A stretch of DNA of 60,356 nt from a virus: positions 1-60,356 of IMG/VR virus record IMGVR_UViG_3300027593_000003; one strand, given 5' to 3'. The translations under genes were made by a program, and so were the position numbers. Every line of letters begins with the position of its first letter. The stretch's first letter is position 1. The notes under the pieces are model-generated. The model saw nothing but the letters and a program-made list of their open reading frames with translations, made no database searches and had not been told where the DNA came from. Positions 2,169 to 60,356 of the stretch are shown in pieces.

Positions 2169-2181
2169 CACCCCAAAAAAC

Positions 2182-2213
2182 AAAAAACCCAATCAGAGGC
2201 GGATCCGATTGGG
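2182..2213 (-). terminator. Intrinsic terminator
   Basis: On the minus strand CCCAATC (2213-2207, preceded by AAAG) pairs with GATTGGG (2194-2188) around a 12-base loop, followed by TTTTTT. The geometry is canonical. It ends transcription from the lysozyme operon and from the candidate small RNA promoter at 2271-2299, just before the leaderless promoter of the next unit. Confidence 0.8.
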
Positions 2214-2264
2214 CTTTGCTGCCATTTAAGGCAATTATAGGGAACAATAAATTGCTCGACCTAT
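2182..2264 (-). ncRNA. Candidate ~83-nt small RNA
   Basis: A minus-strand promoter (TTGACT-N17-TACAAT) would start transcription near 2264, and an intrinsic terminator ends it near 2182. The segment has no usable reading frame. The predicted RNA can form three stems: GCAATT with AATTGC, TGCC with GGCA (these two partly compete), and the terminator stem CCCAATC with GATTGGG. It could instead be the 3' untranslated tail of the lysozyme operon, processed or independently transcribed. The call rests on promoter and terminator geometry only. Confidence 0.45.
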
Positions 2265-3105: not shown

Positions 3106-3657
3106 CTACTTCTTTTCAGTTGTTGGGAATCGCAATAGCCATTCCTGCGCTTTAGGGGTCATACCCTTCCAGCTTGACCAATCTAAACCGCCGTTGGTCA
3201 TATAATACGTTATCTCTGCGTTTGTTACTGGGTCGAATAACTCTTTGTTACTCTTTAGGTCGAACTTCTCAAGTCTTTCAGGACCAAGATTTCCGATCAT
3301 GTTTATCTGGAATACTCCGTAAGAACTATCTCCAGTTTTCTTATCCCCGTTATATGCAAGCGGTCTTCCGTTAGATTCACGCTTTGCTATGGACCAAGCT
3401 TTCTTAAGGCCTACTCCTTCGAATCCTACAGTCTTGAGTAGTAATACTAGCTCTTCGTCTGTAAGCATCTCAGATGGCTTGTAAATTTCTTTACTGAACT
3501 TATCTAAGACTTCTTGCTTTAGTTGGGCTTCAGTTTTCACTAAAGGTTTTACTACTAAGGCTTGTGTAGGCTGGACTGGAAACATAAATAATGTTATCAT
3601 TACTATTGTAACCAGATTATGAGCCAAATCACTAACCTGTTGTTTTATTTTCTCCAT
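3106..3657 (-). CDS. Secreted lysozyme/transglycosylase-like cell-wall hydrolase
   Basis: The 183-residue product has an N-terminal export signal or anchor (hydrophobic residues about 15-28, then PVQPTQA) and a C-terminal lysozyme-like domain. Key features are the Glu in AKRESNG (E94), likely the catalytic acid, and SSYGVFQINM (111-120), the Gly-x-Phe-Gln-Ile-Asn motif of soluble lytic transglycosylase-type enzymes. It would cleave the glycan strands of peptidoglycan. The ATG at 3657 was preferred to ATGs at 3663 and further upstream because AGGAGG lies eight bases before it. It heads a five-gene minus-strand operon. It could be the endolysin, exported by the host Sec system, or a virion lysin; the lysis role is inferred. 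Confidence 0.8.
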   Translation of the reverse strand: MEKIKQQVSDLAHNLVTIVMITLFMFPVQPTQALVVKPLVKTEAQLKQEVLDKFSKEIYKPSEMLTDEELVLLLKTVGFEGVGLKKAWSIAKRESNGRPLAYNGDKKTGDSSYGVFQINMIGNLGPERLEKFDLKSNKELFDPVTNAEITYYMTNGGLDWSSWKGMTPKAQEWLLRFPTTEKK

Positions 3658-59027: not shown

Positions 59028-59188
59028 TGATATCAACAGACGATAAAAGATATTTAATTTTTTCTAGGTTAAAAAACCTAGAGGGATTAAAAAATAGAAA
59101 AATTAGCCAAGACCCAGAGGTATTTGAGTCTATTGAAGATTTAAACTCACAGATTCAGGCATTGACTAATATGCTTGAAATGCTATAA
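59027..59188 (+). CDS. 53-residue charged helical protein
   Basis: The ATG overlaps the adhesin stop as TAATG. The product (MISTDDKRYLIFSRLKNLEG, ending IQALTNMLEML) is strongly charged and predicted to form a helical hairpin or coiled coil. It is the first of three tiny helical proteins in a row. They may be assembly chaperones of the neighbouring fibre; this is inference from position only. Confidence 0.55.
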   Translation: MISTDDKRYLIFSRLKNLEGLKNRKISQDPEVFESIEDLNSQIQALTNMLEML

Positions 59189-59206
59189 TATGAAAGGAGG
59201 AACAAA

Positions 59207-59631: not shown

Positions 59632-60069
59632 ATGGCAACAAATTCATTTATACCAGTTACATTTAACGACGGGGAGCCACTGGATCCTGTCAAGTTAAAT
59701 AAGTTGGTTGATAATATAAATAATATATATCAGTCTAATGCCATATCTTTATCTAATTCATCAACAGGGACATCTCCTCAAGTTCCAGTCATATTTACAT
59801 TTAGACATAAGTTTGAAAATGTAAAAGCGGGCACCCCACAGAACACTCCTATTAATTTTGGAGATAAGTTTACTCAGTCTGAATTGTCTTCAAGTAAGGT
59901 ATATATTTCTACTGGGATAAGGGCTTCCGTAACAGACAAGGATGTTATAACCGCAAGCGTAGGTGGAGTAAGTACAGGAAATCCAACGCTATATGTTAAT
60001 TTTAACGGAGACAATACTCGCACCATATACGTAGATGTAATAGCAATCTGCATGAGGGATATCGTTTAG
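59632..60069 (+). CDS. 145-residue fibre-tip or structural protein
   Basis: AAGGAGA precedes the ATG. The start (MATNSFIPVTFNDGEPLDPV, then KLNKLVDNINNIYQSN) is a helix-containing attachment segment seen in many phage fibre-type proteins. The rest is a beta-rich domain (VPVIFTFRHKFENVKAGTPQ to NGDNTRTIYVDVIAICMRDI). It is the last gene before a terminator, so it probably ends the structural region. It may be a short fibre. Confidence 0.65.
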   Translation: MATNSFIPVTFNDGEPLDPVKLNKLVDNINNIYQSNAISLSNSSTGTSPQVPVIFTFRHKFENVKAGTPQNTPINFGDKFTQSELSSSKVYISTGIRASVTDKDVITASVGGVSTGNPTLYVNFNGDNTRTIYVDVIAICMRDIV

Positions 60070-60074
60070 ACCCC

Positions 60075-60111
60075 TTGACAAGCACCACCAATATGTTACA
60101 ATTATTGTAAC
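60075..60111 (+). promoter_or_regulatory. Promoter overlapped by a perfect palindrome
   Basis: TTGACA (60075-60080), a 16-base spacer ending in TGT, and TACAAT (60097-60102) form a near-consensus promoter. The -10 box lies inside a perfect inverted repeat, GTTACAAT-T-ATTGTAAC (60095-60111), a likely operator. A strong terminator starts just after the predicted transcription start. Confidence 0.65.
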
Positions 60112-60114
60112 ATC

Positions 60115-60141
60115 AAAGTCACGTACCCGTGACTTTTTTTA
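60115..60141 (+). terminator. Intrinsic terminator after the structural region
   Basis: AAAGTCACG (60115-60123) pairs perfectly with CGTGACTTT (60128-60136) around a TACC loop, followed by T residues. It would end the fibre transcript and also stop RNA started at the promoter at 60075-60102 after about 30 bases. Confidence 0.9.
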
Positions 60142-60157
60142 CATATTAAGGTAGAAA

Positions 60158-60356
60158 ATGAGCAACGATTTAAAATGGATGCTTTCATCCGATCAGCAGT
60201 TCCCATATCAAGATGATAAGATGATAGCCCTATGGTTTAAGGTCATGAAATGGTTTAAGCCAGACGTTGTAGACTACCTTGGAGATACAGACGATCAGGC
60301 CTGTTATAGCAAATATACAGAAGGAAGATCCGCAGAGTTTTTAAACTGTCATAAGA
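60158..60356 (+). CDS. Metallophosphoesterase-like protein, 5' part only
   Basis: The gene is cut by the window end; 66 residues are visible. MLSSDQQFPYQDDKMIALWF followed by KPDVVDYLGDTDDQACYSKY resembles the start of calcineurin-like phosphoesterases, with an Asp-x-Gln in place of the usual Asp-x-His and GDTDD in place of GDxxD. These enzymes use two metal ions to cleave phosphodiesters or phosphomonoesters and occur in many phages near replication genes. A short GGTAG ribosome binding site precedes the ATG. It probably marks the start of a non-structural region. Confidence 0.6.
   Translation, partial: MSNDLKWMLSSDQQFPYQDDKMIALWFKVMKWFKPDVVDYLGDTDDQACYSKYTEGRSAEFLNCHK

What the first reader, a model, noticed from the sequence alone, without database searches (positions are those of the whole stretch)
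60075..60141. Promoter with operator-like palindrome running straight into a terminator
Seen: TTGACA-N16-TACAAT with an extended -10 inside the perfect repeat GTTACAAT-T-ATTGTAAC, then a 9-bp terminator stem starting about six bases after the expected transcription start, then the next gene. Inference: either a tiny (~30-nt) RNA, or a switch in which the next gene is expressed only with antitermination, or a repressor-controlled boundary between late and non-structural genes. The promoter at 2271-2299 also pairs a palindrome with a nearby terminator.
Basis: partly seen in the sequence, partly recalled or inferred. Interest (0 to 1): 0.55.

Follow-up and report, generated by a model that had tools for sequence, protein, structure and literature searches.

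The report
Phage promoter ending in own terminator
Just before its DNA-copying genes, a family of freshwater-type bacterial viruses carries an on-switch that runs straight into a stop signal, so those genes can probably be read only when the stop is overridden; the same layout recurs in nearly all close relatives examined and looks like a conserved control switch.

Summary
In detail: TTGACA-N16-TACAAT with extended -10 (60075-60102), a perfect palindrome (really 21 bp, 60093-60113), a 9-bp hairpin plus seven T (60115-60140), then a metallophosphoesterase gene (60158). It is far beyond chance: the promoter is present in all 159 loci found through that gene and in 74 of 74 testable loci found through the helicase gene, always with 16-nt spacing. 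The dyad survives in 72 of 82 distinct copies, with compensating changes in both arms. The hairpin, also with compensating changes, sits about 6-9 nt from the predicted start.

Best reading: the promoter of a metallophosphoesterase / MerR-like / DnaB-helicase operon with a promoter-proximal intrinsic terminator. Most transcripts should end after about 32 nt; operon expression needs read-through. Only about six nucleotides precede the hairpin, so riboswitch, leader-peptide or RNA-borne antitermination has no room. It works like lambda pR'-tR' or alpB-tB, but lacks a conserved binding element in the -35/-10 spacer, so it is not filed there. A functional tiny RNA is unlikely. Streptomyces phages have a similar promoter-hairpin at the same place.

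The "second" promoter (2299-2271, minus) starts something else: a conserved, covarying ~87-nt non-coding RNA without Rfam match. No transcription data were available.

The parts
60075..60080 (+). -35 element TTGACA
   Evidence: TTGACA in 92 of 92 distinct copies (part of these were found by a pattern that demands it), and in 54 of 54 distinct copies found through the downstream gene alone
60094..60102 (+). extended -10 TGt-TACAAT
   Evidence: TG in 54 of 54, TACAAT 48, TACACT 4, TATTAT 2
60093..60113 (.). 21-bp perfect dyad ATGTTACAATTATTGTAACAT over -10 and start
   Evidence: 72 of 82 distinct copies keep 7 or more pairs, with compensating changes at arm positions 4, 7 and 9
60108..60113 (+). 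TAACAT, -10-like hexamer at -1 to +5 (possible sigma-dependent pause element; also part of the dyad's right arm)
   Evidence: TANNNT in this register in 41 of 54 distinct copies, shifted by 1-2 nt in 9, absent in 4
60109..60140 (+). predicted ~32-nt terminated transcript (start inferred 7 nt after the -10)
   Evidence: inference; no RNA data
60115..60140 (+). intrinsic terminator: 9-bp stem, TACC loop, T7
   Evidence: compensating changes in 3 of 9 pairs; T run of 6 in 81 of 92
60158..60356 (+). metallophosphoesterase gene, 5' part (record ends)
   Evidence: phrog_221, E 1.7e-15
59632..60069 (+). last gene of the upstream unit, function unknown
59162..59189 (+). promoter-like TTGACT-N16-TATAAT after the tail genes; its unit would end at the same terminator
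   Evidence: comparable promoters after the minor tail gene in Streptomyces phages
2178..2264 (-). predicted ~87-nt three-hairpin non-coding RNA, ending in hairpin CCCAATCGGATCCGCCTCTGATTGGG and T run
   Evidence: 11 of 20 pairs with changes on both sides

Best explanation
The 66 bp are the control region of the phage's replication-side operon (metallophosphoesterase, small genes, MerR-like winged-helix protein, DnaB-type helicase). RNA polymerase of the presumably actinobacterial host starts at about A60109 from a near-consensus extended -10 promoter, meets an intrinsic terminator whose hairpin begins at about +7, and mostly stops after about 32 nt. The operon is made only by polymerases that read through, either at a fixed low rate or, more likely, when a phage or host factor acts on polymerase at the promoter. 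The same terminator also ends the upstream unit of tail-adjacent genes. The dyad over -10/+1 is a selected control site, either for a regulator bound to DNA or as a fold-back hairpin. Shown: the parts, their conservation, synteny and compensating changes. Inferred: start site, termination, dependence on read-through, the factor, the host.
For: Promoter at fixed spacing in 159 of 159 loci and 74 of 74 testable loci from two independent protein queries, while the flank upstream is not alignable (major-base frequency mostly 0.3-0.5) and third codon positions of the downstream gene average 0.69: the element belongs to the downstream operon. The hairpin is held by compensating changes and begins at predicted RNA nucleotide 7-9 in 82 of 92 distinct copies. 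The next recurrent promoter lies about 3.4 kb downstream, before the primase (45 loci examined, not all have it). In Streptomyces phages and their relatives 9 of 23 entries show a promoter and, at nucleotide 2-11, a strong hairpin at the same syntenic place with unrelated sequence. About 6 nt before the hairpin leave no room for an aptamer, leader peptide or put/nut RNA. Precedents with promoter, terminator and read-through factor: alpB/AlpA and 21 pR'/Q (passages read).
Against: No RNA evidence of start, stop or read-through. No antitermination factor identified: the operon's MerR-like protein has much the same recognition segment in dyad-bearing and dyad-lacking phages. No conserved binding element in the -35/-10 spacer. 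Some Streptomyces-type hairpins lack a T run (Blueeyedbeauty, L320), and BillNye and Wakanda have a promoter near this place without a hairpin. Four Rhodococcus phages and 13 of the 23 Streptomyces-type entries lack the module. One copy (L508) has lost the hairpin with T run (seen by eye), so the terminator is not indispensable.
Confidence: 0.5

Rival explanations
1. One-way boundary: the terminator is there to end transcripts from the tail side, in which the dyad folds as an RNA hairpin stacked one nucleotide before the terminator hairpin; transcripts from the embedded promoter start inside the dyad, lack that hairpin and read through well enough.
For: In an upstream transcript the two hairpins fold in tandem with 1 nt between them. 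Arm-to-arm gaps of 5, 6 and 7 nt occur in 54, 6 and 12 of 72 dyads, and all 12 with gap 7 have an extra inner pair, as a hairpin would need. A promoter-like site at 59162 would feed this terminator.
Against: The near-fixed distance from -10 to hairpin and the Streptomyces-type copies, with hairpin but no dyad, point to coupling with the promoter. G.U-type intermediates are not preferred over C.A. Dyad-less copies keep the terminator.
Confidence: 0.25
2. Plain repressor control: the dyad is the operator of a phage or host repressor that blocks the promoter, and the hairpin is a leaky terminator or a 5' stem-loop that stabilises the mRNA.
For: Position over -10/+1 is typical of repressor operators (general knowledge); arms change in concert; single site per record in 11 of 11; T tract weak in some Streptomyces-type copies.
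Against: Gap between half-sites varies by 2 bp, unusual for one dimer geometry; no cognate repressor found; the six-T run is kept in 81 of 92 copies, which a stabilising stem-loop would not need.
Confidence: 0.15
3. A functional ~32-nt RNA is the product.
For: Strong promoter directly followed by a terminator; stem sequence GTCACG is common (80 of 89).
Against: Loop has 20 sequences; the six 5' nucleotides vary and are part of the dyad; Rfam gives only a sub-threshold isrD match, 17.1 against 37 bits.
Confidence: 0.06
4. The site primes or marks a replication origin, and the short transcript is incidental.
For: It lies at the border of the replication genes.
Against: Nothing found specifically for it; whole-genome skew and replication were not examined.
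Confidence: 0.03

Closest known systems
Lambdoid late promoter pR' with terminator tR' and Q (lambda, 21)
   Same: Phage promoter followed by an intrinsic terminator before the operon's first gene; possible -10-like hexamer in the first transcribed bases (PMC6606751, passages read)
   Different: Q binding element lies between -35 and -10; here that spacer is variable apart from AATATG and the conserved site is a dyad over -10/+1. It controls replication-side genes rather than late genes. No Q-like gene identified.
Pseudomonas aeruginosa alpB promoter, terminator tB and AlpA
   Same: Promoter, terminator, first gene; -10-like CACGAT at -1 to +5 in alpB (PMC9371919, passages read) against TAACAT in the same register here
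   Different: tB begins 54 nt after the start (PMC7969949, passages read), here about 6; the AlpA binding element is in the -35/-10 spacer.
phiC31 conserved inverted repeats near promoters and terminators (recalled; one search found no paper on it)
   Same: Streptomyces phage, short inverted repeats beside promoters and terminators (recalled)
   Different: phiC31 has many copies and a known repressor (recalled); here one copy per record and no repressor.
Promoter-hairpin before the metallophosphoesterase of Streptomyces phages Comrade, Blueeyedbeauty and TunaTartare
   Same: Same syntenic place, consensus-like promoter, hairpin within about 11 nt of the predicted start
   Different: 17-nt spacing, no dyad, GC-rich hairpin of unrelated sequence, T run weak or missing in some.

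Membership tests
Q/AlpA-type promoter-loaded antitermination modules | sigma70-type promoter followed by an intrinsic terminator before the first gene | tested here: met
Q/AlpA-type promoter-loaded antitermination modules | conserved factor-binding element between -35 and -10 | tested here: not met
   first nine spacer positions variable in 54 distinct copies; only AATATG next to the -10 conserved
Q/AlpA-type promoter-loaded antitermination modules | -10-like pause element in the first transcribed bases | tested here: inconclusive
   TANNNT at -1 to +5 in 41 of 54, shifted in 9, absent in 4; confounded with the dyad's right arm, though TAATAT persists in four of the five copies with the TTTAGATAAT variant
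Q/AlpA-type promoter-loaded antitermination modules | cognate antiterminator protein | tested here: inconclusive
   operon's HTH protein (phrog_9440) predicts as MerR-type winged helix, residues 58-128, best Z 7.6 to 5d90_C with ties; Q or AlpA not listed, which does not exclude them
Q/AlpA-type promoter-loaded antitermination modules | read-through activity | not testable with these tools
   needs transcription assays
Repressor operator (palindrome over a promoter) | dyad maintained by selection | tested here: met
   72 of 82 with 7 or more pairs, shuffled maximum 12; compensating changes at three positions
Repressor operator (palindrome over a promoter) | fixed half-site spacing | tested here: not met
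   gap 5 in 54, 6 in 6, 7 in 12 of 72
Repressor operator (palindrome over a promoter) | cognate repressor | tested here: inconclusive
   MerR-like candidate does not track dyad presence (53 of 54 loci); other genes not examined
Trans-acting small RNA | conserved unpaired seed | tested here: not met
   loop and 5' end variable
Riboswitch, leader-peptide or nut/put-type attenuator | leader RNA before the terminator long enough for aptamer, ORF or antitermination RNA | tested here: not met
   hairpin starts at predicted nucleotide 7-9 in 82 of 92 copies
Known Rfam family (for the second-site RNA) | match at gathering score | tested here: not met
   window 0 matches; 9 loci only tRNAs; L349 none up to E 1; window copy best RF00236, 24.9 of 45 bits

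The most novel reading that the evidence does not exclude
A new type of promoter-embedded switch: a hairpin-forming dyad that overlaps -10 and start, directly abutting an intrinsic terminator at +7, lets polymerase tell transcripts begun here from transcripts arriving from upstream, or loads an unknown antitermination factor through the -10/+1 region rather than the -35/-10 spacer. It would be the checkpoint between tail and replication genes in a large clade of phages related to actinophages.
Probability: 0.2. Interest if true: 0.75.

Novelty: new variant of a known kind. Interest (0 to 1): 0.5.

Why it matters
How these environmental phages, related to Streptomyces and Rhodococcus phages, time their genes is open as far as the searches made here show; a module this constant gives a handle on it. 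If read-through is regulated, it extends promoter-loaded antitermination to this group with a layout in which the terminator begins at about +7, leaving RNA-borne mechanisms no room. The second site adds a covarying structured RNA that had no Rfam match in the copies tested and whose hairpin has no exact match in the 84,980 species genomes of genome contigs.

Tried and rejected
Bidirectional promoter from the palindrome: considered by reading; the minus strand has no -35 and its -10 loses the final T in copies with ATTGC, so not pursued. Trans-acting tiny RNA: no conserved unpaired stretch. MerR-like protein as dyad binder: its recognition segment does not clearly differ between dyad-bearing and dyad-lacking phages. 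Fold search of that protein: MerR-type matches of middling score; Q and AlpA structures did not appear, which excludes nothing. Palindrome at the second promoter: not conserved. Host: the downstream protein gave no relative in genome contigs, so the host is inferred only from homologues in Streptomyces, Rhodococcus, Gordonia and Mycobacterium phages. Nearest named phages by DNA: none. Literature: seven searches; listings only, except passages read in PMC7969949, PMC9371919, PMC6606751 and PMC11150451. I did not find this module or this RNA described, in those searches only. Sub-threshold Rfam matches were taken as chance. Copies dropped: 11 pattern hits not followed by the same gene (listed); 6 of 66 second-site copies with no clear promoter or odd length, then 3 identical ones. 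One search printed 'none 73' because my pattern had the wrong spacing; one search corrects it. Of 590 relatives and 591 only the best 80 each were available; of at least 594 only 80.

Full report
WHAT IS THERE. The window is a 60,356-base linear virus record with portal, protease, tape measure and tail genes. Near its right end, five bases after the stop of a small gene of unknown function, lie TTGACA (60075-60080), a 16-nt spacer, an extended -10 TGt-TACAAT (60094-60102), a hairpin with a 9-bp stem (60115-60136) and seven T (60134-60140); the next gene starts at 60158 and matches the phage metallophosphoesterase family phrog_221. The palindrome is longer than reported: 21 bp, perfect, 60093-60113. 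The predicted start is A60109, so the predicted transcript before the stop is about 32 nt.

IS IT MORE THAN CHANCE. Three protein queries were used. The upstream protein gave 11 loci; all 11 show promoter, dyad and hairpin. The metallophosphoesterase gave 590 and 591 relatives in two scans, of which the best 80 each were returned; after merging, 159 loci, 54 distinct upstream sequences, all with TTGACA, 16-nt spacer and TG. The helicase further on in the operon gave 80 loci; 73 had at least 3.4 kb upstream and all 73 held the metallophosphoesterase; the promoter motif is in 74 of 75 helicase loci with that gene, and the exception begins inside the gene. The three samples overlap. The upstream flank is unalignable and third codon positions of the gene average 0.69 major-base frequency, whereas the element is nearly invariant.

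THE TERMINATOR. In 92 distinct copies (some found by a pattern that selects the promoter and right arm) the hairpin starts at predicted RNA nucleotide 7-9 in 82, and the T run is 6 in 81. Three of nine pairs show changes on both sides (A-U to G-C, U-A to C-G, G-C to A-U), with 97.1% of cells paired. Loops vary: 20 sequences in 89 hairpins with perfect stems. One copy, L508, has lost the T run and the GTCACG stem (seen by eye).

THE DYAD. Of 82 distinct copies 72 keep 7 or more pairs in the arms; shuffling the right side gives 5.6 on average and at most 12. Arms change together: position 4 T-A in 63, C-G in 5; position 7 C-G in 66, T-A in 2; position 9 A-T in 14, C-G in 8. These positions are tolerated by the promoter on the left side, while the right side follows. 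The gap between 8-bp arms is 5, 6 or 7 nt (54, 6, 12 of 72) and all 12 with gap 7 carry a ninth pair. This suits a fold-back hairpin better than one rigid protein dimer, but related sequences are not independent, and a regulator that changes with its site is not excluded. Related sequences without the dyad keep promoter and terminator (L076, L281, L282, L303, L307; L535). On the 54-row alignment the measure 'pairs with a change on both sides' for dyad plus terminator was reached by 39 of 500 shuffles, and 'further pair types' by 424 of 500; the other three measures by none.

CONTEXT. After the metallophosphoesterase come small genes, a protein of phrog_9440, a DnaB-type helicase and a primase (primase by named relatives). 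Named relatives with the same order are Streptomyces phages of Stanwilliamsviridae and Rhodococcus phages. The next recurrent promoter is about 3.4 kb in, in front of the primase (45 loci; in the 25-nt bin at 3375 it is in 19, with further ones in neighbouring bins). Streptomyces phages Comrade, Blueeyedbeauty and TunaTartare have a consensus-like promoter and a strong hairpin at the same spot. Of 23 entries of this type (3 named plus 20 virus contigs, some of which are copies of named phages) 10 pass the promoter test, one of them weakly; in the other nine the hairpin begins at nucleotide 2-11. The remaining 13 have none, and neither do four Rhodococcus phages. A further relative, L468, seems by eye to have a TTGACA promoter with a hairpin close behind; L466 and L467 do not. 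BillNye and Wakanda have a promoter near this place in front of an inserted gene.

HOW IT MOST LIKELY WORKS. Transcription starts inside the dyad and runs into the terminator almost at once. With six leader nucleotides, control through a leader RNA is excluded by space, so regulation, if any, must act through DNA at the promoter, through the polymerase, or through terminator efficiency itself. That is the logic of Q and AlpA: both need a binding element in the promoter and a -10-like hexamer in the first transcribed bases; in alpB the hexamer is at -1 to +5 and the terminator starts 54 nt after the start (passages of PMC9371919, PMC7969949, PMC6606751). Here TAACAT stands at -1 to +5 in the window, and TANNNT in that register in 41 of 54 copies; this is suggestive, but it coincides with the right arm. 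The binding element between -35 and -10 is missing, so I do not file the module there. The alternative that the terminator mainly closes the upstream unit, with the dyad as a second RNA hairpin one nucleotide before it, explains the gap pattern better and is kept as the chief rival.

THE CANDIDATE REGULATOR. The phrog_9440 protein was modelled from 42 aligned sequences (of 43 representatives listed; mean pLDDT 80.6). Residues 58-128 resemble MerR-type winged helices (best Z 7.6, rmsd 2.7 over 60 residues, 5d90_C; others tied; Foldseek best E 0.057). Its recognition segment is alike in phages with and without the dyad (53 of 54 loci), so there is no support for it as the dyad binder.

THE SECOND SITE. 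The promoter at 2299-2271 (minus) starts a different thing. With the window and the loci, 88 copies gave 66 distinct predicted RNAs, 60 of them with a TTGAC promoter and a length within bounds; 57 distinct RNAs were aligned. They fold into three hairpins; 11 of 20 pairs have changes on both sides, 142 cells against 36.9 in shuffles, none of 500 as high. The third hairpin, with loop UCCGCC, was fixed by the search pattern, so its constancy is by construction. A covariance model found the RNA in 14 of 18 long records chosen because they hold the downstream gene. Rfam: no match at gathering score in the window, and in 9 loci only tRNAs. No exact hairpin in genome contigs, no match in named phages. 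Its function is unknown; a loop that could pair with GGCGGA is a thought, not a result.

LIMITS. No transcripts, no infected culture, no identified host. Counts describe related sequences, not independent events. The start site is a rule-of-thumb prediction.

Noticed in passing
window 2299-2178, minus strand; L339-L418: Strong promoter followed by a three-hairpin RNA of about 80-95 nt to its hairpin end, with strong covariation in hairpins 1 and 2 and a UCCGCC loop in the terminator hairpin; at least 119 viral stretches, no Rfam match in the window or 9 loci tested, no named phage, no exact match in genome contigs.
   Followed up: partly
G012 (113,997-base record) 32-117 and 113902-113987: The same non-coding RNA lies at both ends of one record, which suggests a terminal repeat or a complete circular map closing inside it.
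   Followed up: no
window 59162-59189; L223:2003, L224:2027, L225:1412, L226:1434, L227:2003: Promoter after the tail genes in the window and, in five Streptomyces phages, promoters with long spacers at the corresponding place; several of these spacers look like inverted repeats by eye.
   Followed up: no
L225:2780, L226:2783: In BillNye and Wakanda a TTGAC promoter ends about 10 bases before the start codon of an inserted gene, so its mRNA may be leaderless.
   Followed up: no
L011 / L101 / L479 downstream of the element: In this near-identical relative the start of the metallophosphoesterase is joined to a later part of the gene (a deletion or assembly join) while the control element is intact.
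   Followed up: no
L340, L347, L348, L376: Contigs with the non-coding RNA often also hold tRNA genes, in some cases close beside it.
   Followed up: no
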